44,585 bases of DNA from an archaeon (GTDB taxonomy: Archaea; Thermoplasmatota; Thermoplasmata; JAJSAE01): positions 1-44,585 of the forward strand of contig JAJSAE010000027.1 of the NCBI GenBank assembly GCA_024281315.1, read 5' to 3'. Under the pieces are notes generated by a model that was not told the DNA's origin, did no database searches, and worked only from the letters and a program-made list of their open reading frames with translations. Shown here piece by piece: positions 2,218-31,390 of this stretch (its first letter is position 1; each line of letters begins with the position of its first letter). A program made the translations under genes and the position numbers.

Positions 2218-3669
2218 ATGAACAGATACGGACCTGCCGGCATACCACTTTCCTCAAAGGGGAGAACAATAAAGGATGGGATTGAAGATGTACACATGAT
2301 GGGGCTCAATGCCATAGAGATTCAGATGATACGGAATTTCGTGGAACAAAGGCCACCGGAAGACTTCGAAGTGGGAATGAGACCGGAGGAGGTCCGGAGT
2401 TCTTTTATTGTTGAGGTGGGGAAACCTGCCGGGGACGATTATATATACACATCCACGGGAAAAGAGGTCATAGATGAAGATGATCTTCTGACGGTGCTTC
2501 ATGTTCCCAGCGTTGGGATAAACTACATGGAACTTAGGGCCATGGGAAAACTTGCCCGCATACTTGATGTAAGGGTTGCCGTGCACAGCCAGTATTACAT
2601 AGACCTGATATGTGACGAAGAGATAACATACAGAAGTCTGGATAACATAATGTGGAGCGGCGTGGTGGCAAGAGAGATAGGAGCGGAGCTCGTTATCACC
2701 CATCTCGGCCCTTACGGAGACATCAAAAAGAAAGAAGCGATGAGAAGAGTTAAGAAGAATCTGCAGGCTATTGTGCAGCGCTTCAGAGAAAATGGCATAA
2801 CCGCCATTATAGGGGTTGAAACGAGCGGAAAGCAGGAGTTAGTCGGCACGGTGAACGAAGTTATAGCCATTGCCAGAGATGTTAACGGTGTGGTTCCTCT
2901 TCTGAATTATTCACACATCCACTCCAGAGAGGACGGAAGTCTTAAAACGCCCGAAGACTTCAAAAAGCTCTTTCAAAAGATAAGAAAATACACTGGAACA
3001 GAGATTTACGGCCACTTTTCTGGGGTTGAGTACGACAAAGGAAACGAAACAAGGGCCACTCCCATAAAAAAAGGCGACCTGAAGTTCGAACCGCTAGCCG
3101 AAGCCATGCTCGAAAGTGAGGAAGATTTTGTGCTCATATGCGATTCGCCCCTTCTCGAACACGATGCGATGTACATGAAGGTCATCACCGAAAGGACACT
3201 GAGCAAGAAGATTGCAAAGGAGAGGAGAGAGAGGGAAAAACTGGCACTTGAGCATGAGAAAGAGGAAGAGGAGAGGAAGAAACGGGAAGCGGAGGCCGCA
3301 AAAGAGGCAGAGAAGAAGAAAAGGGAGGAGGAGAAAAATGCCACTACTCTCGCAAAGGAAGAAAAGAAGGAAGATGAGATAACAGAGAAGAAAACGCAGA
3401 AAAAAGCCGCCTCCGAACCCAGTGGAAAAAAGCCGGCAAAGAAGGATGGTAAGGGAGAGAAAAACGAAAGCTCTGTAAAAACTAAAAAGAAGGAAGAGAA
3501 AAAGGAAGCGGGGAAGAAGGAATCACCGAAGGCAGCAAAGAAGAGTGAGGGGGAGAGTAAGGAAAAGAAAGAGAAGGCTGCTTCAGAATCTCCCGATAAA
3601 AAGGACAAGAAAGCAAAAAATGGGAAAAAATCTCCTACAAAAAAGAAAACGCCAAAGAAGGAAAAGTGA
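2218..3669 (+). CDS. Endonuclease IV-like TIM-barrel protein with long Lys/Glu tail
   Basis: Residues 1-325 form an AP-endonuclease-family-2/xylose-isomerase-like TIM barrel. Motifs matching endonuclease IV metal ligands are H123 (VHSQYY), H162 (THLG), E201 (GVETSG), H233/H235 (NYSHIHS), H266 (GHFSG) and D309 (LICDSP). Several canonical ligands (the Asp before the HxH region, and the DxH pair) look replaced, so abasic-site cleavage is probable by family but not certain. Residues about 329-483 are an extreme-composition tail, almost all Lys, Glu, Ala and Ser, with no predicted fold. Lys-rich tails often give non-specific DNA binding; that is inference here. The gene is followed after 4 bp by hxlB. 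Confidence 0.8.
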   Translation: MNRYGPAGIPLSSKGRTIKDGIEDVHMMGLNAIEIQMIRNFVEQRPPEDFEVGMRPEEVRSSFIVEVGKPAGDDYIYTSTGKEVIDEDDLLTVLHVPSVGINYMELRAMGKLARILDVRVAVHSQYYIDLICDEEITYRSLDNIMWSGVVAREIGAELVITHLGPYGDIKKKEAMRRVKKNLQAIVQRFRENGITAIIGVETSGKQELVGTVNEVIAIARDVNGVVPLLNYSHIHSREDGSLKTPEDFKKLFQKIRKYTGTEIYGHFSGVEYDKGNETRATPIKKGDLKFEPLAEAMLESEEDFVLICDSPLLEHDAMYMKVITERTLSKKIAKERREREKLALEHEKEEEERKKREAEAAKEAEKKKREEEKNATTLAKEEKKEDEITEKKTQKKAASEPSGKKPAKKDGKGEKNESSVKTKKKEEKKEAGKKESPKAAKKSEGESKEKKEKAASESPDKKDKKAKNGKKSPTKKKTPKKEK

Positions 3670-4258: not shown

Positions 4259-4870
4259 CTAATCATCCCAGCAGACATCCGTTCTTAACCGGATACGCCG
4301 CATTATTTTATACACCCTTTCTCCGAAGAACAGAGTAAAGTAGAAGTTCCCTGCCGCATGCAGAATGTTGAATATCATACCGGATAGAAGAACTGCAAGA
4401 TAGGTATAAAGTCCGGGCGGGAAGAACATCAGGAATGTGGAGGTGTCCATTATGAGGCCGTACATTATACCGAAAAGAGCGGAGACCACCGCAGCGGTCT
4501 TTACATTCAGATGCACACCTTCATCCCCCTTTCTCAGAAGCAGAGGCCGAAGATAGGAAGATATGGCACCCACAAGGCCCCATGCCAGCATCTGCCAGAT
4601 TGTCCAGTATCCCTGACCCAAAAATATATTGGATATCGCTGCGGTCATTACCCCCACAAGAAAGCCGCTCTCCGCCCCGAAGGCAAGGCCCGTCATCATT
4701 ATAAGAAATGTGCAGGGCTGTATATTCGGAAGAGGCGCAAACGGAATCCGGGACACTCCGATAAGTGCTCCGAGAACGGAGACAAGGACAACCCTTCTGG
4801 AATCCATTGCCCCCATTTCGAATCGGATTATGACATAGAGTACAGGCAGAGCAGCCAGTAACACGGACAT
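4259..4870 (-). CDS. ECF transporter substrate-binding (S) component
   Basis: A 203-residue integral membrane protein with about six hydrophobic helices. The N-terminal region around RRVVLVSVLGALIGVSRI and the following FAPLPNIQPCTFLIMMTGLAFGAESGF resemble energy-coupling-factor S components. S components bind the vitamin or metal and topple in the membrane to deliver it. It is the last gene of a five-gene minus-strand operon, 13 bp after the EcfA gene. The substrate is not evident from the sequence; the associated transcobalamin-like DUF4430 proteins point to a corrinoid (inference). It ends tail-to-tail 3 bp from hxlB. Confidence 0.82.
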   Translation of the reverse strand: MSVLLAALPVLYVIIRFEMGAMDSRRVVLVSVLGALIGVSRIPFAPLPNIQPCTFLIMMTGLAFGAESGFLVGVMTAAISNIFLGQGYWTIWQMLAWGLVGAISSYLRPLLLRKGDEGVHLNVKTAAVVSALFGIMYGLIMDTSTFLMFFPPGLYTYLAVLLSGMIFNILHAAGNFYFTLFFGERVYKIMRRIRLRTDVCWDD

Positions 4871-4883
4871 CAGAGGAGTAATA

Positions 4884-6296
4884 TCAGCCGTTGTACCGCC
4901 CCCTGCATATCAGTTCCCCGTTCCTTAATTCATATATGTTGGCAGAGAGAAGGCGGAGAAGTTCGGTATCATGACTGGCCACAATCGCACCCTTTCCCTC
5001 CCTCAATTCCCCCGACAGATAGTTTACAAGGGCCAGCCTCTTTGCGGGGTCCATTCCGCGTGTGGGCTCGTCGAGAAGGATTAGCCTCTGTCCCGACACA
5101 AGAACGGAGGCCAGTGCGGCCCTCTCCTTTTCGCCCGTGCTGAGGTCCCTCGGATTGGTATATCTGTATTTCGTAAGGAACAGGCGATCCAGTATCTCAA
5201 GCGTTCTTCTGTCCGCATCATTTTCCTTAAAATTTCTCAGTGAGAATGTGATCTCTTCCTCAAGGGTATCATGAAACAGATAGACACCGGGATACTGGCC
5301 GAGATAGGCGATATAACGGGCACGGGAGGCGGGAGAAAGTTCATTCATAACCTTCATTTCGTTTCCGGTATTCACTTTCACAACCCCCTCTGTTTTCACC
5401 CTTGGCAGGCCCATTATACCTTTGAGTAATGTGCTCTTTCCGGAACCGTTTATCCCTGTGAGGCCGATGACCTCGCCTGCACGGAGACTTATATTTATGT
5501 TATTGATCACAGGGCTGTCCCCGCCAACCGTATTGACCGTATTGTTATAGGAGGCGGAAAAACCGGAAATTTCCAGAAGAGGGCTGTTATCCACAGTATA
5601 TAACGGAATCGCTTCTCTCTTTTTAAAAATGTAGTTCATGCACGCACAGTCCGACTCCGCCCCGTGCTCCATGCAGAATTCCCTGCTTCCCTTCTCTTTT
5701 CCGTGGGTCGAGAGGAGGAGCGTTACGCCTTCCTTGTTTAGCCCCCTTAATAGTCTCATGAGATCATCTGCGATGGTATTATCGAGTTGTGACGCGGGTT
5801 CGTCAAGAAGAACATACTTCGGTCCGGGCGCGAGGATGCTGGCAAGAAGAACTCTCTGCTTTTCCCCGCCGGAAATCTCCGTAGTTCTGCGCTCCAGAAG
5901 ATGGGATATGCCGAGAGCGTCGGCCCAGTACTCTATTCTTCTCAGTATTTCGCTCCTCCCGAAGTTTAGATTCTCCATGGCAAAGGCAATCTCCTGCTTT
6001 ACCGACGACATGACAATCTGATTCTCCGGGTCCTGAAAGAGTAGACCCACCGTTTTTCTTATACGCTCGACATCGTATCTTGTGCTCAATCCATCCACGG
6101 TTACATCACCGGATATGTGTCCCCCGTAGAAATGAGGGACTATTCCGTTCACAGAGCGAAGAAGCGTTGTTTTGCCCGAACCGGAAAGCCCTCGTATGAT
6201 AAGAAAATCGCCTTCCTGCACGGAGAGATTCAGACCGTTTATGGCCGCTTCCCTTCCTTCTGGATAGCGGTAAGTAAGGGATTTTACCTCTATCAT
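4884..6296 (-). CDS. ECF transporter ATPase with two fused ABC domains
   Basis: A 470-residue protein with two complete ABC ATPase modules, equivalent to EcfA1 and EcfA2 fused in one chain. Module 1 has Walker A GLSGSGKTT (near residue 36), signature ISGGEKQR and Walker B VLLDEPASQLD. Module 2 has Walker A GINGSGKST (near residue 280), signature LSTGEKER and Walker B ILLDEPTRGMD. Each half keeps a switch His (STHGKE; ASHDTE). Between the modules is a Cys-containing insert (ESDCACMNYIF) not typical of the family. It energises vitamin or metal uptake with EcfT and the S component. Its start overlaps the end of ecfT by 4 bp. Confidence 0.93.
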   Translation of the reverse strand: MIEVKSLTYRYPEGREAAINGLNLSVQEGDFLIIRGLSGSGKTTLLRSVNGIVPHFYGGHISGDVTVDGLSTRYDVERIRKTVGLLFQDPENQIVMSSVKQEIAFAMENLNFGRSEILRRIEYWADALGISHLLERRTTEISGGEKQRVLLASILAPGPKYVLLDEPASQLDNTIADDLMRLLRGLNKEGVTLLLSTHGKEKGSREFCMEHGAESDCACMNYIFKKREAIPLYTVDNSPLLEISGFSASYNNTVNTVGGDSPVINNINISLRAGEVIGLTGINGSGKSTLLKGIMGLPRVKTEGVVKVNTGNEMKVMNELSPASRARYIAYLGQYPGVYLFHDTLEEEITFSLRNFKENDADRRTLEILDRLFLTKYRYTNPRDLSTGEKERAALASVLVSGQRLILLDEPTRGMDPAKRLALVNYLSGELREGKGAIVASHDTELLRLLSANIYELRNGELICRGRYNG

Positions 6297-7150
6297 CGTT
6301 CACCTCCTGCAATCACAGACAGATAAAGCAGAATTGAAATAAGAGCGGCAGGGGAAAGACCGATGTCAGGAAAATCAGCAAGTAATAGAGGAAAAGTCCA
6401 GGGAGCGATAAAAATCCATGAAAGCATGAGAAAGAGAGCGATTGTCTGAAATGCTAGAAGAAGTTTTTCAAAGCGAAAGAGAGGTCTGTGAAAAGCGGGC
6501 ACAACCCCTTTTCTTCCGGAGAAAGAGCGGGACTCCATGGATTCGGCCACACTGAGCCCTCTCTCAAGAGAGCCGGTAAGCAGGGGAAGGAGTAGCAGCC
6601 CCCTGTTCCTGATCTTCTCGATTCTGCCGCCGGCATCCATTTCGACCCCGCGCACCCTCATAATGTCCTCTATTTCCGCCTCGTCCTCTGCGATAAGAGG
6701 GTAAAGACGGCTCCCCATGGCAACGGCAAGCATTACCTTCGAACCGGAGGTTGCGTTGAGTATCTCATCGGGATTGACCACCAGTGAGAGGATGAGGAAG
6801 GAGCCGATTGATACCAGAAGGCGGAGAATAAGCGGTATGGAGGCCATCACGGGTTCCACGGGAATCGATATGCCGTAGATATTCCACCATGTGTTTTTCG
6901 GAAGGATGATAAGGTCTATGATAAGTATGCTGAGGGAGAGGTAAAGGGCGAAACGCATCACGGAGGCCCAGTTCCTCAGGATTTTCGCAAATGCGGCAAC
7001 AATAACGGTCACCATCAGCAGGAGGCACATATACCAAATGTTCGCAGTTACAAGAGAGGCCGAGAATACGGAAAGCACAAAGGCTGTTATGACATACGGA
7101 TGAAGCGAGTGGATTCGGCTGCCGGTATCTCTGTAAATAGGAAGCATCAT
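6293..7150 (-). CDS. ECF transporter transmembrane component EcfT
   Basis: A 285-residue EcfT/CbiQ-type coupling protein with about six hydrophobic segments. The cytoplasmic region includes the conserved Arg/Gly-containing motif DIMRVRGVEMDAGG, which docks onto the ATPases, and a second coupling-helix-like segment (AESMESRSFSGR). It links ATP hydrolysis by the double EcfA to movement of the S component. The gene overlaps both neighbours by 4 bp (ATGA type), indicating translational coupling in the operon. Confidence 0.92.
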   Translation of the reverse strand: MMLPIYRDTGSRIHSLHPYVITAFVLSVFSASLVTANIWYMCLLLMVTVIVAAFAKILRNWASVMRFALYLSLSILIIDLIILPKNTWWNIYGISIPVEPVMASIPLILRLLVSIGSFLILSLVVNPDEILNATSGSKVMLAVAMGSRLYPLIAEDEAEIEDIMRVRGVEMDAGGRIEKIRNRGLLLLPLLTGSLERGLSVAESMESRSFSGRKGVVPAFHRPLFRFEKLLLAFQTIALFLMLSWIFIAPWTFPLLLADFPDIGLSPAALISILLYLSVIAGGER

Positions 7151-7653
7151 ACACCTCTGGAATTCCGGGCAACAGATGATGAAAAAGACCAGACAACGAT
7201 GTCATCATGGGCAAGAGCATAGGAATCGGAGGAAACTGAGGCATACACGCCATTGACCCAGTACTGCCAGTATGCCCCGCCATCCCCATTATTATATCCA
7301 TTTACGGAAACAACCAGTTTTCCGTAGGAGTAATTTTCGTAACTGAAACTCCACCCCGCAATGTCAGATGCGTTTTTGAGGGCCTCAAACGGATTCTCGG
7401 CGGAGAGATTATGAAAGATAACCGTGGAGGAGTTCCCTGTTTTCTGCATCCACACGCCATCATTAAGAAACCATTCCTCGGGTTCCGATGCATCTCTACC
7501 TCCAAAGTTCACGGTAAGAGTTATCCGTGGAGCATCTTTATCAATATGTCCGTTTTGCAGAGGATTGAACCCTGCGAGGAAAAGGATGAGGAGAGCGAAG
7601 ATAACAAAGCCGACAGCGGCGAAGCCCAGCTCCTTCTTTCCTCCCCTTTCCAT
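7147..7653 (-). CDS. Membrane-anchored DUF4430 (transcobalamin-like) protein
   Basis: A 168-residue protein with an N-terminal signal anchor (about residues 10-29) and an extracellular DUF4430 domain. The hallmark is the C-terminal segment YWQYWVNGVYASVSSDSYAL followed by DDIVVWSFS. DUF4430 is related to the beta domain of human transcobalamin and intrinsic factor. A role presenting substrate to the adjacent ECF permease is inferred from the operon. It lies 4 bp after the PQQ-repeat gene and overlaps ecfT by 4 bp. Confidence 0.8.
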   Translation of the reverse strand: MERGGKKELGFAAVGFVIFALLILFLAGFNPLQNGHIDKDAPRITLTVNFGGRDASEPEEWFLNDGVWMQKTGNSSTVIFHNLSAENPFEALKNASDIAGWSFSYENYSYGKLVVSVNGYNNGDGGAYWQYWVNGVYASVSSDSYALAHDDIVVWSFSSSVARNSRGV

Positions 7654-7657
7654 GCCT

Positions 7658-9367
7658 TTACCTCCGCTTCAGTACAATCACCGCCAGCAGAATACCGACA
7701 ACCGCTATGACGACGATTCCCACGGCCATGTAGATGTACACATCCATGTTAAGGCCGGTCAGCGGTTCATCGGTACCGTTCCCGGTGCTGTTTCCGTCCG
7801 AAACTCCAGAATCGTTTGCACCGCCATCAGAAAAAGCAACCGCGTGCGTGTATATGTAAAGAGAGCCGGTATCCGCTCCCATGACCAGCTGGTCTTCAGC
7901 CGGCACTGGAGACGAGAGAACATAGGAACCGCCGGTTATGGCGTCATTCCAGCGAATAGCCCCGTCCGCCGTGTCCAGTGCGTACAGTGTACTGTTGTCC
8001 TCCGAAGTTACCGCATATATAGTGTCCCCCGCCACAATTGGAGATGCTTTCAGAGGCCCCCCAAGGTCCTTTTCCCAGACCCTGTTTCCATCTTTATTAA
8101 GACAGAGAAGGCTGTTTCCGGCAGCGGCATAGATGTTATTACCGTCGTGGGCCGGTGATGAGGTGGCAGGGCCGGTTTCCGCCGTCCAGAGAATGCTTCC
8201 GTCCGTTTTCGAGAGGGCAGCTATGTTGCCGCTAACCGCTGCATATCCGCTGTAAACCGAGGATGTTACTATGAGCATGTCGCCTGCCACAACCGCACTG
8301 CCCCGTATCTTCCCACCTACGCTGGCGTTCCAGACCTCCCCGCCGCTGGTATTAACAGCATAGAGAACACCGGCATCATTTCCGATGAAGATGTTCTGGC
8401 CGTCTGTGGTGGGTGTGGCCGCATAGATGGAAACGGTGGTGTTGAACCTCCAGTTCATGGTCCCGTTCATGGCCACAGAGTAGAGGTATCCGTCTCCCGA
8501 ACCGACATATACGGAGCCTCCATAATACATAGGACTGCCGGTTATTCCGGTGAATGAGGGAGATGTACCAAATGTCCATTCCTCGCTCCCGTCCTCCGCA
8601 TCGAAGGAATACAGTTTTCCGTCTGTAGAGCCCACGATAACCATTCCGTCGGCATATAGTGATGTTGATGTCTGCCATCCCGCACCCCCGATGTCGCTCT
8701 TCCAGAGGATATTATAATCCCGGTCCATGCAGAACACCTGCGGGCTGCTGTCGTATGAATACGAGGTCCAGTTGTAGAGACCGGAGGTCACCCCGATTAT
8801 CTTACCATCCGCATATATGACGCTGGAGTCGATGAAGCCGTTGTTCATTGGAATCTCCGTTCTGTTCACAGGCCCCGCTATTCCGGCAATAGAAGAGTAA
8901 CCGGGAGCGCCGGGGCCGTTCCTGTATGAAACCCATGGATGCATGTTCTCAGGGGTTGCAGCGGGGGAATCGCCGGGGTACCCTGCCACGAGGCTCCATG
9001 CAATTGCCCCTTTATCAACGGCCACACTGTCCGCACCGGAAGTAGAGAGTTCCCACGAAAAAGACGAGGAGTTCCAGAGCCAGAAGTGCCACCACGGCCC
9101 GGGCCATGCCCCCTCCCGGCCGCCGATGGAGTTCACCATCACGCCGTATGAACTGGTGCTGTAATTGATATCGATGCCCGCACTCTCGCAGGCCGCAAGG
9201 GTCATGTTAAAGGCGCTCCCTGTTTCATTCGATTCGAGCCAGACGGATCTGCCGTCCCCGTAGTCAATGAGGACCGGCACAGATGTTTCTTCTCCCATTA
9301 CTGCATGGGGCGCAAAGAGAACCGCCAGAAAGGCCAGTGCCAGTATTATAACTGCAATTTTTCTCAT
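7658..9367 (-). CDS. Surface protein: DUF4430 domain, PQQ-like beta-propeller, C-terminal membrane anchor
   Basis: A 569-residue protein with a signal peptide (residues 1-25), a DUF4430 domain (about 28-125, with WPGPWWHFWLW and DKGAIAWSLV), a beta-propeller of PQQ-type repeats (about 170-510; repeated W-F/G and LYALDTADG-like blades) and a C-terminal transmembrane helix followed by KRR (about 540-569). It is therefore anchored outside the cell. The N-terminal domain could catch a ligand for the downstream ECF transporter, while the propeller is probably a binding or structural scaffold; no catalytic residues for a PQQ dehydrogenase are apparent. It is the first gene of the operon and sits directly behind an inverted-repeat promoter element. 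Confidence 0.85.
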   Translation of the reverse strand: MRKIAVIILALAFLAVLFAPHAVMGEETSVPVLIDYGDGRSVWLESNETGSAFNMTLAACESAGIDINYSTSSYGVMVNSIGGREGAWPGPWWHFWLWNSSSFSWELSTSGADSVAVDKGAIAWSLVAGYPGDSPAATPENMHPWVSYRNGPGAPGYSSIAGIAGPVNRTEIPMNNGFIDSSVIYADGKIIGVTSGLYNWTSYSYDSSPQVFCMDRDYNILWKSDIGGAGWQTSTSLYADGMVIVGSTDGKLYSFDAEDGSEEWTFGTSPSFTGITGSPMYYGGSVYVGSGDGYLYSVAMNGTMNWRFNTTVSIYAATPTTDGQNIFIGNDAGVLYAVNTSGGEVWNASVGGKIRGSAVVAGDMLIVTSSVYSGYAAVSGNIAALSKTDGSILWTAETGPATSSPAHDGNNIYAAAGNSLLCLNKDGNRVWEKDLGGPLKASPIVAGDTIYAVTSEDNSTLYALDTADGAIRWNDAITGGSYVLSSPVPAEDQLVMGADTGSLYIYTHAVAFSDGGANDSGVSDGNSTGNGTDEPLTGLNMDVYIYMAVGIVVIAVVGILLAVIVLKRR

Positions 9368-9392
9368 ATTCTATCACCGTTTACCTGTATCG

Positions 9393-9411
9393 GTTGGATG
9401 TATCATCCAAC
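9393..9411 (-). promoter_or_regulatory. Perfect 8-bp inverted repeat, candidate operator of the ECF operon
   Basis: GTTGGATG (9393-9400), spacer TAT, CATCCAAC (9404-9411). It lies 25 bp upstream of the first ECF gene (ATG 9367) and just downstream of a TATA box, i.e. over the predicted transcription start, where archaeal repressors usually bind. Confidence 0.65.
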
Positions 9412-9432
9412 TGGCGAGAGGAATGAAACGGG

Positions 9433-9440
9433 GTATAAAA
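9433..9440 (-). promoter_or_regulatory. TATA box of the ECF operon
   Basis: On the minus strand TTTTATAC at 9440-9433. A start site about 25 bp downstream would be near 9410, within the inverted repeat at 9393-9411. Confidence 0.6.
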
Positions 9441-9606: not shown

Positions 9607-10800
9607 ATGAGTGAAAGAATAGAAAAATTTGTTGATGAAGCAATTAAAAATAATGATATGGCTCTTATTGATGTCTTATGGACTTTATCATATTCTTGGA
9701 GTCCTGGTTATTACGATAATTATTCTGCTTATAGAAGAACTTTTAAAAATTGGTTTCTGCCAATTACTAAACAGAACCTACAGAAGAAGTATAATTTAAA
9801 GAACCCGGGAATAAAAGAAAAGATGAGGCTTTTTTATAGATTTCAAGATGACCTGCCTGAGTTTTTCTACCGAGAAAAAAATCAAGAGGAATTAAGGAAA
9901 ATACTACTTGATAAGACCCCAAAAATCTTGGTCCAAAACCTCAGAAGCAATCTAAAAAATTTGTCTGATCTTGATAAGAATATTCTTTCATTTGTGATAG
10001 CCTATCCAATAAAAGGCAATTTTTGGCGTGGCGATATAGAAGGATATACAAAGATCTTTAATATTTTGTTCGAAGAAGAATTAACACGAGAAAAAGCCAA
10101 TCCAAATAATAGAAGAGGGGTGAATAAAATAACTGGCGGAGCGATTCTAGAAATAGTTAATCCTAATGAAAAGTGGTCTAAGGTTCAGGCCTTAAATGAC
10201 AGTTTTTGGCAATTCGGAGATGAACTGGTAAAGATGGGTGTTGGTTACTGGTATATTTTTATAAGCTCGAAAGGAAATGAACAGATAAGGTTTGTCATCC
10301 CAGATTTTATTTCTGAAGATATTGAGAATAATAAGGAATATTATCAGAAACATCTCCCATTAATTGATAGAGAAAGAATCAAGGAAATAAAAGATGATAT
10401 AAAGCACGGCCTTGAAAATGATGAGACAATAGTTAGTAATCTGTCTGAGCGGGATATCGAAGATTTTTTAGTATCGCACCCAGAAAAGTTAGAAGAGGGT
10501 TTAGTAATGATAGATAGGCAATATAAAACACCCGATGATGTTGGTAGAATGGATATGCTATGCAGGGATAAAGATGGAAATTTTGTTGTCGTAGAGTTGA
10601 AAAAAGATAATGAAGGGCAGGATAAAGCAGTTGGTGAGATTCAAAGATATATGACTTCGGTCGAGAAAAATCTTGCTAAAAACGAAGAAGAGGTTAGGGG
10701 AATTATTGTAGTAAAAGAAGATAATGATAAACTAAAATATTCTATACATGGCTCAAGATTTCACATAGATATAAAAGCATTTAAGGGGATTTCACAATAG
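9607..10800 (+). CDS. NucS/RecB-like nuclease with unrecognised N-terminal domain
   Basis: A 397-residue protein whose C-terminal 125 residues match the NucS (DUF91) endonuclease fold: D316 in GRMDML, E330 and K332 in VVVELKK, Q346 and Y348 in EIQRYM. The D-to-E spacing of 14 residues is the same as in NucS. NucS cuts mismatched or branched DNA. The first 270 residues, rich in aromatic and charged residues (YSWSPGYYDNYSAYRR; WYIFISSKG), are not recognised and replace the usual NucS DNA-binding domain. The gene is much richer in A+T than its neighbours and uses AT-ending codons, so recent transfer is likely. A defence or restriction role is possible but not shown. It stands alone with its own promoter. 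Confidence 0.8.
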   Translation: MSERIEKFVDEAIKNNDMALIDVLWTLSYSWSPGYYDNYSAYRRTFKNWFLPITKQNLQKKYNLKNPGIKEKMRLFYRFQDDLPEFFYREKNQEELRKILLDKTPKILVQNLRSNLKNLSDLDKNILSFVIAYPIKGNFWRGDIEGYTKIFNILFEEELTREKANPNNRRGVNKITGGAILEIVNPNEKWSKVQALNDSFWQFGDELVKMGVGYWYIFISSKGNEQIRFVIPDFISEDIENNKEYYQKHLPLIDRERIKEIKDDIKHGLENDETIVSNLSERDIEDFLVSHPEKLEEGLVMIDRQYKTPDDVGRMDMLCRDKDGNFVVVELKKDNEGQDKAVGEIQRYMTSVEKNLAKNEEEVRGIIVVKEDNDKLKYSIHGSRFHIDIKAFKGISQ

Positions 10801-11114: not shown

Positions 11115-11120
11115 TTTTAT
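11115..11120 (+). promoter_or_regulatory. TATA-like box of larA
   Basis: TTTTAT about 50 bp upstream of ATG 11167; a GGGAG Shine-Dalgarno-like sequence at about 11155-11160 precedes the start codon. Confidence 0.35.
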
Positions 11121-11166
11121 GCATCCCCGTGTTTCCACCTTTCATAAAAAACAAGGGAGCGATAGA

Positions 11167-12429
11167 ATGAAGATAGAACTGCCATACGGAGAGAAGAAAC
11201 TGACAGTCAGCGTTTCGGACAAGAATCTGGCCGGCGTAATCCTGCCCACCGATATATCGCCGGAGAAAGGAGCGAGGGATGCAATCGTTCAGGCACTGGA
11301 GCGGCCGATGGGCTCCCGCCCTCTGAACGAGATTGCAAAAGGAAGAAGGGATGCGGTCATAGTTGTGGACGACAACACCCGGCCCTGCCCCACATGGGAG
11401 ATGATACCCCCTGTTCTTGATATACTGAACGGAGCAGGAATCCCCGATGAGAGGATAACCGTCATATTCGCAACCGGCACCCACAGAACCGTGAGAGATG
11501 ATGAGGCGGAGCGGCTGTTAGGAAAAGAGGGTGCGTCACGGGTAAGATACATAAGCAACGACCCGCACGGAGAGGACTTCACATATGTGGGCACAACATC
11601 CAGAGGGACGGACATGGAGGTGAAGAACGCATACCTGAATGCAGACCTGAAGATACTCCTCGGAGATGTGGAAATCCACTACTTCGCAGGGTATGGAGGA
11701 GGAAGAAAGAGCATCCTGCCGGGCATATGCAGTTACAGAACGATTCAGGAGAACTACATCGCCAATTTCTTCAGCCACACCGCTGCTCCCGGAGTCCTTG
11801 ACGGGAATCCGATGTATGAAAATATGACAGAGGCCGCAAGGCTCGCACCCCCGGATTTCACCCTCAATGTGGTTCAGAACAGCAGGCACGAGATTGTAGG
11901 GGCCTTTGCGGGAGATTTTGACATGGTCCTCAGAAAGGGCGCGAGGCTTATAGACCGTATGTATAAGGTGAAGGTGAAGGAGAGGGCGGACATCGTTATC
12001 GCGGCTGCCGACGGGAATCCGCACGACATCAACATGTATCAGGCCTACAAGGCCATTCATCTCTCTCTACCTGTGCTGAAGGATGGGGGGCGCATAATTC
12101 TGGTAGCCGCATGTCCGGACGGTATCGGAAGCAAAGCCTACGGGGAATGGCTGAAAAAATACGACACGCCGGAAGAGGTGGAGGCCGCACTGAGAAAAGA
12201 GTTCATCCCCGGCGGCCACAAGGTGTATTTCCAGTACAACGCTATAAAGAAGGCAAGGATAAGCATGGTAACCGAGATGACAAAAGAAACGGTGGAAAGC
12301 CTGCTGCGGTTCACATACGAGGAGAATGTGCAGGAAGCACTGGAAAAGGCTCTCGAGGAATACGGTGAAAAAAGCCGGGTTCTCGTGATACCGAGGGCCA
12401 CCACGACACTGTCGGAGTGGATGGAATAG
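11167..12429 (+). CDS. larA: LarA-family nickel-pincer-dependent 2-hydroxyacid racemase
   Basis: A 420-residue DUF2088/LarA protein. LarA racemises lactate using a nickel-pincer nucleotide cofactor; related enzymes act on other 2-hydroxyacids, so the substrate is open. Key matches are DDNTRP (69-74), H106 in ATGTHR and H171 in EIHYFAGYGGGRK (proposed catalytic pair), K181 (site of pincer attachment in the lactate enzyme) and H204 (candidate nickel ligand). I chose ATG 11167 for its GGGAG ribosome site and because the length matches the family; the frame from 11119 begins within the promoter. No larB, larC or larE pincer-synthesis genes are in the window. Confidence 0.88.
   Translation: MKIELPYGEKKLTVSVSDKNLAGVILPTDISPEKGARDAIVQALERPMGSRPLNEIAKGRRDAVIVVDDNTRPCPTWEMIPPVLDILNGAGIPDERITVIFATGTHRTVRDDEAERLLGKEGASRVRYISNDPHGEDFTYVGTTSRGTDMEVKNAYLNADLKILLGDVEIHYFAGYGGGRKSILPGICSYRTIQENYIANFFSHTAAPGVLDGNPMYENMTEAARLAPPDFTLNVVQNSRHEIVGAFAGDFDMVLRKGARLIDRMYKVKVKERADIVIAAADGNPHDINMYQAYKAIHLSLPVLKDGGRIILVAACPDGIGSKAYGEWLKKYDTPEEVEAALRKEFIPGGHKVYFQYNAIKKARISMVTEMTKETVESLLRFTYEENVQEALEKALEEYGEKSRVLVIPRATTTLSEWME

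Positions 12430-29920: not shown

Positions 29921-31390
<1,470 letters not shown>

What the first reader, a model, noticed from the sequence alone, without database searches (positions are those of the whole stretch)
4259..9440. ECF transporter operon with two transcobalamin-like (DUF4430) surface proteins
A complete ECF module (EcfT, fused double EcfA, S component) is co-transcribed with two extracellular DUF4430 proteins, one tethered by a signal anchor and one carrying a PQQ-type beta-propeller with a C-terminal anchor. DUF4430 is related to the C-terminal domain of transcobalamin, so an archaeal cell-surface corrinoid capture system feeding an ECF permease is a natural hypothesis. Bacterial ECF systems usually need no outer binding protein, so this would be an unusual two-step design.
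Basis: inference. Interest (0 to 1): 0.7.

Follow-up and report, generated by a model that had tools for sequence, protein, structure and literature searches.

The report
Archaeal surface vitamin B12 uptake operon
Five neighbouring genes in an archaeon that seems unable to make vitamin B12 most likely build a surface trap and an ATP-driven pump for importing it; the design was predicted for bacteria in 2007, and this case argues that archaea use it for B12 too.

Summary
Five tightly packed minus-strand genes (9367-4259) encode: a secreted beta-propeller protein with an N-terminal DUF4430-like domain and a C-terminal anchor; a membrane-anchored DUF4430 protein; EcfT; a fused double EcfA; and an S component. 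The corrinoid reading is well supported. By sequence the S component resembles CbrT, the proven cobalamin S component, far more than any other solved one (E 1.8e-15, next 0.74). The DUF4430 model matches transcobalamin, intrinsic factor and haptocorrin. Relatives of the operon in bacteria carry a cobalamin riboswitch directly upstream (17 of 23 scanned). All 31 of 400 sampled genomes of the class that hold this S component also hold DUF4430. The host genome has an adenosylcobalamin-dependent ribonucleotide reductase and an adenosyltransferase, but no CbiC or CobS was found (genome 91% complete). It is not a new kind of system: Burroughs et al. 2007 (PMC1796856) described transcobalamin-like surface proteins, propeller fusions, paired genes and CbiO/CbiQ neighbours, and predicted B12 scavenging in bacteria, leaving the archaeal substrate open. 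This locus largely answers that point. Binding, hand-over and transport are untested. Side lead: 38 related archaeal loci pair the same surface proteins with a DUF6580 membrane protein and no adjacent ECF motor.

The parts
7658..9367 (-). Gene 1: secreted surface protein, 569 aa: signal/TM segment, DUF4430-like beta-grasp domain, PQQ/BamB-type beta-propeller, C-terminal TM anchor
   Evidence: ORF; PQQ_2 E 1.4e-37; AF2 model pLDDT 75.6 with propeller and TM helix 543-568; Foldseek BamB-like propellers
8984..9280 (-). DUF4430-like (transcobalamin beta-domain-like) region of gene 1, residues 30-128
   Evidence: hhalign to the DUF4430 protein family 98.7%, E 4.7e-16, unrelated control 0.7%; beta-grasp order of strands and helix in the model; Pfam itself does not detect it here
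7844..8869 (-). Beta-propeller region of gene 1, residues 167-508
7664..7741 (-). C-terminal transmembrane anchor of gene 1, residues 543-568
   Evidence: helix in model; hydrophobic stretch followed by KRR in the sequence
7147..7653 (-). Gene 2: membrane-anchored DUF4430 protein, 168 aa, N-terminal TM helix (residues 7-28)
   Evidence: PF14478 E 9.8e-10 over cut-off; model pLDDT 84; Foldseek top 19 hits are intrinsic factor, transcobalamin, haptocorrin and 3u7z
7180..7389 (-). DUF4430 domain match inside gene 2, residues 89-158
6293..7150 (-). Gene 3: EcfT (CbiQ family transmembrane coupling subunit)
   Evidence: PF02361 E 2.4e-16; below the cut-off of the cobalt-specific TIGR02454
4884..6296 (-). 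Gene 4: fused EcfA-EcfA' with two complete ATPase domains
   Evidence: two ABC_tran stretches; both Walker A (GLSGSGKTT, GINGSGKST), signature and Walker B motifs are present in the sequence
4259..4870 (-). Gene 5: CbrT-like ECF S component
   Evidence: phmmer to 6fnp_A E 1.8e-15, next S component 0.74; PF12822 over cut-off; shared motifs PN(I/V)QP, SNxFLGxGxWT, HAxGN in alignment A1

Best explanation
The operon encodes a cobamide (vitamin B12-type corrinoid) uptake system. The two DUF4430 proteins sit on the outer face of the membrane, one on a short N-terminal tether and one as a larger propeller protein with a C-terminal anchor. They capture scarce cobamide and raise its local concentration at the CbrT-like S component. 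The S component carries it across the membrane by toppling, powered by EcfT and the fused EcfAA ATPase. In the cell the BtuR-type adenosyltransferase makes the adenosyl form for the class II ribonucleotide reductase. Shown here: gene content, fold and sequence kinship, conserved linkage, riboswitch control in bacterial relatives, and absence of the corrin synthesis markers tested. Inferred: ligand binding by the DUF4430 proteins, hand-over to the S component, transport, and the propeller's role (spacing or docking is more likely than a second binding site).
For: S component matches CbrT, the S component of a cobalamin transporter proven in proteoliposomes and by E. coli complementation (PMC5997447), at E 1.8e-15 against 0.74 for the next. 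DUF4430 model: all hits at E<=0.001 are intrinsic factor, transcobalamin, haptocorrin or a bacterial DUF4430 protein. Cobalamin riboswitch RF00174 on the operon strand within 1 kb upstream in 17 of 23 scanned bacterial relatives; 3 of the other 6 lack upstream sequence and 3 are Chloroflexota (gene positions). 64 of 80 relatives fetched by S component alone have a DUF4430 or propeller gene in the operon. In the class sample the S component occurs in 31 of 400 genomes, all DUF4430-positive (p 5e-25), 24 physically linked within 3.3 kb. Own genome: adenosylcobalamin-dependent RNR 768 bits against cut-off 400, BtuR 215 bits, no CbiC, no CobS. Genomes with DUF4430 rarely have CbiC: 6 of 79 against 78 of 321, p 6e-4.
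Against: No binding or transport data. CbrT is a distant, very long branch in the S-component tree, so fine specificity could have shifted. No riboswitch in the window or archaeal relatives. L. delbrueckii ECF-CbrT transports B12 without DUF4430 proteins (PMC5997447), so they may be dispensable. Four of the 31 genomes with this S component do have CbiC, and the anti-correlation of S component with CbiC alone is not significant (p 0.36). The host also has a BtuCDF/FecBCD-like importer. The genome is 91% complete, so absences are provisional, and PF02310 is absent, so RNR is the only corrinoid enzyme found.
Confidence: 0.86

Rival explanations
1. The system imports a corrinoid precursor (cobinamide) or a non-cobalamin cobamide, rather than cobalamin itself.
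For: CbrT of L. delbrueckii takes up cobinamide as well as cobalamin (PMC5997447). Archaeal environments hold varied cobamides (general knowledge).
Against: CobS, needed to finish cobinamide into a cobamide, was not found in the host, nor in most genomes with this S component. Specificity among complete cobamides cannot be told from sequence.
Confidence: 0.25
2. In archaea the DUF4430 proteins scavenge some other metabolite, the alternative left open by Burroughs et al. 2007.
For: Four genomes with this S component, methanogen-like, keep CbiC, and the archaeal loci lack riboswitches.
Against: The S component is CbrT-like and belongs to the family that is riboswitch-controlled in bacteria. 27 of 31 genomes with it lack CbiC, and the host has an adenosylcobalamin-dependent RNR and BtuR.
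Confidence: 0.08
3. It is a cobalt or nickel ECF importer, as the Pfam name CbiQ 'Cobalt transport protein' suggests.
For: EcfT hits PF02361.
Against: Gene 5 is not CbiM/NikM-like. EcfT scores 39.9 against the cobalt-specific cut-off of 111.8. The genome has a separate CbiM-CbiO-CbiQ cluster elsewhere that does pass (126.7 bits).
Confidence: 0.02
4. It is a riboflavin or other vitamin ECF transporter, and the DUF4430 proteins are unrelated surface proteins that happen to share the operon.
For: A Pfam riboflavin S-component model hits gene 5 (PF07155, E 6.3e-8).
Against: No riboflavin S component of known structure is matched at E<1, whereas CbrT is at 1.8e-15. The NCBIfam riboflavin and folate models score far below cut-off. 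DUF4430 linkage spans phyla.
Confidence: 0.03

Closest known systems
Transcobalamin-like SLBB surface proteins in CbiO/CbiQ operons (Burroughs et al. 2007, PMC1796856)
   Same: Transcobalamin C-terminal (DUF4430) domains on secreted anchored proteins, a propeller fusion, a second paralogous SLBB protein in the same operon, neighbouring ECF ATPase and T genes; B12 scavenging proposed
   Different: Described mainly in bacteria (propeller fusion in Clostridium); S component not identified then; the archaeal substrate was left open
ECF-CbrT of Lactobacillus delbrueckii (6FNP, PMC5997447)
   Same: CbrT-type S component on an EcfT/EcfA module; linked to adenosylcobalamin-dependent RNR (nrdJ operon there, same genome here)
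   Different: No DUF4430 proteins are needed for transport there; the ECF module is shared among S components, whereas here it is dedicated and its ATPases are fused; sequence distance is large
Animal transcobalamin, intrinsic factor and haptocorrin
   Same: The beta-domain fold matches gene 2
   Different: The window proteins have no alpha/alpha toroid half; a propeller is present instead. Some bacterial relatives (L168) do carry toroid plus DUF4430
BtuG/BtuH/DUF4465 surface B12 binders of Bacteroides (PMC6143338, PMC8941943, PMC13398666)
   Same: Surface-exposed proteins that capture B12 for a membrane transporter; BtuG is also a beta-propeller
   Different: They feed an outer-membrane TonB receptor; no detected kinship (gene 1's propeller is BamB/PQQ-type)

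Membership tests
ECF transporter | EcfT, two ABC ATPase domains and an S component | tested here: met
   PF02361, two PF00005 stretches and PF12822 over cut-off
ECF transporter | ATP-driven uptake of a micronutrient | not testable with these tools
   needs reconstitution or complementation
CbrT-type cobalamin S component | Sequence kinship to CbrT above that to other S components | tested here: met
   E 1.8e-15 against 0.74; the profile result E 4e-48 is partly circular because CbrT was in the alignment
CbrT-type cobalamin S component | Close clade with characterised CbrT | tested here: inconclusive
   CbrT forms a branch of length 4.8
CbrT-type cobalamin S component | B12-responsive regulation of the family | tested here: met
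   RF00174 upstream of 17 of 23 bacterial relatives; absent in archaeal relatives
CbrT-type cobalamin S component | Binds and transports cobalamin | not testable with these tools
   needs a binding or uptake assay
DUF4430 / transcobalamin beta-domain (SLBB) family: gene 2 | Pfam model over cut-off and matching fold | tested here: met
   39.2 bits against 23.8; Foldseek probability 1.00 to transcobalamin-type proteins
DUF4430 / transcobalamin beta-domain (SLBB) family: gene 1 | Pfam model over cut-off | tested here: not met
   no hit in the window protein; sub-threshold hits in orthologues
DUF4430 / transcobalamin beta-domain (SLBB) family: gene 1 | Remote homology to DUF4430 proteins | tested here: met
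   hhalign 98.7%, E 4.7e-16; control 0.7%
Full transcobalamin architecture | alpha/alpha toroid plus beta-domain | tested here: not met
   no toroid domain in genes 1 or 2
BtuG-type B12-binding propeller | Fold or sequence kinship to BtuG | tested here: inconclusive
   the 50 best PDB fold matches listed are BamB-, tetrathionate hydrolase- or YxaL-like or designed propellers, not BtuG; no direct comparison was made

The most novel reading that the evidence does not exclude
DUF4430/propeller pairs are a general archaeal surface corrinoid receptor that serves two different permeases: a full CbrT-type ECF transporter (this window and at least 27 sibling loci) and, in 38 other loci, a DUF6580 S-component-like protein with no adjacent ECF motor. 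26 of the 39 genomes searched for it have no detectable EcfT at all. DUF6580 would then be a new motor-less B12 transporter family, loosely comparable with BtuM, and the receptor would be an obligate hand-over partner.
Probability: 0.4. Interest if true: 0.65.

Novelty: new member of a known kind. Interest (0 to 1): 0.45.

Why it matters
It addresses a question left open in 2007, whether archaeal transcobalamin-like proteins scavenge B12 or something else, and gives a concrete, testable corrinoid uptake system for archaea that depend on exogenous B12 for DNA precursor synthesis. It links the animal B12 carrier domain to a prokaryotic capture-and-pump system spread over Bacillota, Chloroflexota and archaea. 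It also suggests an accessory binding protein for ECF transporters, whose characterised examples work without one.

Tried and rejected
Cobalt or nickel import: rejected, because gene 5 is not CbiM-like and a separate CbiM cluster exists. Riboflavin: rejected on the solved-structure comparison. Riboswitch in archaeal loci: none found. A simple class-wide anti-correlation of the S component with CbiC: not significant (p 0.36); only DUF4430 against CbiC is. My iterated HMMs for the short DUF4430 protein and the propeller protein merged into one family, so later counts used a profile from short proteins only. PF01923 as the adenosyltransferase marker was negative in the host; PF02572 was the right family. 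The literature search for DUF4430 by name found nothing on function; the prior work is under the SLBB name.
Full report
Observation. Five minus-strand genes lie head to tail between 9367 and 4259 with gaps of 4, -4, -4 and 13 bases. In order: a 569-aa propeller protein, a 168-aa DUF4430 protein, EcfT, a 470-aa fused double ATPase and a 203-aa S component. The next gene downstream is convergent (3-base gap, a 6-phospho-3-hexuloisomerase-like protein) and the next upstream is divergent (9607, NucS-like), so the operon is bounded on both sides. Both ATPase halves keep Walker A, signature and Walker B motifs by inspection.

Surface proteins. The 168-aa protein scores over the Pfam DUF4430 cut-off. 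Its model (mean pLDDT 84) has an N-terminal membrane helix and a beta-grasp domain. The 18 PDB matches at E<=0.001 are human or animal intrinsic factor, transcobalamin, haptocorrin and 3u7z, a bacterial DUF4430 protein; probability falls from 1.00 at rank 19 to 0.33 at rank 20. The 569-aa protein has a BamB/PQQ-type propeller and a C-terminal membrane helix. Its N-terminal domain is not found by Pfam but aligns with the DUF4430 protein family at 98.7% probability, E 4.7e-16, against 0.7% for an unrelated control. That alignment also spans the N-terminal hydrophobic segment; the wider DUF4430 alignment, which covers the domain only, gives 97.8%. In Methanomassiliicoccales-type relatives the small protein carries a lipobox-like FSGC motif (alignment A5); the window copy does not.

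S component. Against all PDB sequences the only convincing match is 6fnp_A at E 1.8e-15; the next S component is at 0.74. 6FNP is ECF-CbrT of L. delbrueckii, shown to transport cobalamin and cobinamide (PMC5997447). Shared motifs are visible in alignment A1. CbrT is nevertheless a very long branch in the tree, while the window protein sits in a supported clade of 20 thermoplasmatal rows. All archaeal rows fall in one supported set of 48 that otherwise holds seven bacterial rows, six of Chloroflexota and one Peptococcaceae MAG.

Conserved linkage. A scan of 84,980 species genomes with the S-component alignment gave at least 588 relatives, of which 80 loci were kept. In 64 of the 80 a DUF4430 or propeller gene lies in the same cluster. 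Most of the other 16 are short contigs or are cut at the operon; L157 and L181 hold the whole module with wide flanks and no DUF4430. In a 400-genome sample of the window's class the S component is in 31 genomes, every one DUF4430-positive, against 48 of the other 369 (p 5e-25), and in 24 they lie within 3.3 kb. Of the other seven, two are split by contig ends next to the operon and five belong to one family in which, in the four loci read, a propeller protein sits beside EcfT.

Substrate. In bacterial relatives a cobalamin riboswitch lies on the operon strand within 1 kb before the first gene in 17 of 23 loci scanned: L121, L123, L124, L136, L138, L139, L145, L146, L150, L151, L153, L155, L163, L168, L171, L175, L198. 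L119, L140 and L149 hold little or no upstream sequence; L132, L154 and L178 are Chloroflexota without one. Riboswitches are absent from the archaeal loci tested. The first gene in several of these bacterial operons is an SLH-anchored DUF4430 protein, and L168 combines DUF4430 with an alpha/alpha toroid, the two halves of transcobalamin.

Host need. The window's genome (91% complete) has an adenosylcobalamin-dependent ribonucleotide reductase (768 bits, cut-off 400) and a BtuR-type adenosyltransferase. It lacks detectable CbiC, CobS and the PF02310 B12-binding domain. Class-wide, genomes with DUF4430 have CbiC in 6 of 79 against 78 of 321 (p 6e-4), but for the S component alone the contrast is not significant (4 of 31; p 0.36). 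A second, BtuCDF/FecBCD-like importer is present next to a CbiM-CbiO-CbiQ cluster on another contig, so this operon need not be the only route.

Mechanism. The proposed order is capture by surface DUF4430 domains, hand-over to the S component, toppling and release driven by EcfT/EcfAA, then adenosylation for RNR. The S-component and ATPase steps follow from the known ECF mechanism. Capture is inferred from fold and linkage. Hand-over and the propeller's role are inference only. Since L. delbrueckii ECF-CbrT works without such proteins (PMC5997447), they may sharpen scavenging rather than be essential.

Prior knowledge. Burroughs et al. 2007 (PMC1796856) recognised the transcobalamin C-terminal domain in bacterial and archaeal surface proteins, listed a propeller fusion, noted paired SLBB genes in operons with CbiO-like and CbiQ-like genes, and predicted B12 scavenging; for archaea they suggested a distinct metabolite might be taken up because many archaea make B12. 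What is added here: the CbrT identity of the S component, riboswitch control across bacterial relatives, the B12-consuming and apparently non-synthesising host, and the separation of two archaeal types. I found no later experimental work on these proteins in the open library searched; subscription papers are not covered.

Side finding. In 38 Thermoplasmata loci the DUF4430 protein is followed directly by a DUF6580 protein, a distant S-component-like family, with no EcfT or EcfA beside it. Of 39 such genomes searched, 26 have no detectable CbiQ/EcfT at all, although many are incomplete, and none has CbiC. No paper in the library mentions DUF6580. This is the most novel lead from the session.

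Noticed in passing
L057, L069, L080, L100, L106 and about 33 more loci: Type II clusters: propeller plus DUF4430 followed by a DUF6580 S-component-like membrane protein with no ECF motor beside it, in 38 thermoplasmatal loci; 26 of 39 genomes searched have no CbiQ/EcfT. Candidate motor-less corrinoid transporter.
   Followed up: partly
L100:12056-12856, L080:8976-9779, L069:8259-9056 and others: A winged-HTH/DUF7839 regulator lies next to many type II clusters, often divergent from the propeller gene; possibly a corrinoid-responsive regulator replacing the riboswitch.
   Followed up: partly
L168:1834-6201, L123:3284-6160, L136:3517-6366: Bacterial first-gene proteins combine SLH anchors with DUF4430; L168 also has an alpha/alpha toroid, the two halves of transcobalamin in one S-layer-type protein.
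   Followed up: partly
L064 (G187:C30:60000-79900): One genome has about six large propeller proteins in tandem upstream of the ECF module, most with a DUF4430-like domain.
   Followed up: no
L167, L174, L186: Clostridium loci with two CbrT-like S-component genes, with DUF4430 genes nearby.
   Followed up: no
L085, L088, L097, L101, L105 (family f9): A second, isolated DUF4430 gene far from the ECF operon in genomes whose operon has only the propeller protein.
   Followed up: no
window 11119-12429: LarA-family nickel-dependent (malate or lactate) racemase; the same genome has a CbiM-CbiO-CbiQ Ni/Co importer on another contig (L199).
   Followed up: partly
window 9607-10800: Protein with a NucS C-terminal nuclease domain fused to an unassigned N-terminal region of about 270 aa, divergent from the operon.
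   Followed up: no
window 2218-3669: Protein of 483 aa whose last third is an extreme lysine/glutamate-rich tail; the N-terminal part looks endonuclease IV-like by eye.
   Followed up: no
window 29922-31390: A 16S rRNA gene with no other rRNA gene detected in the window, a split-rRNA arrangement as in Thermoplasmatales.
   Followed up: no
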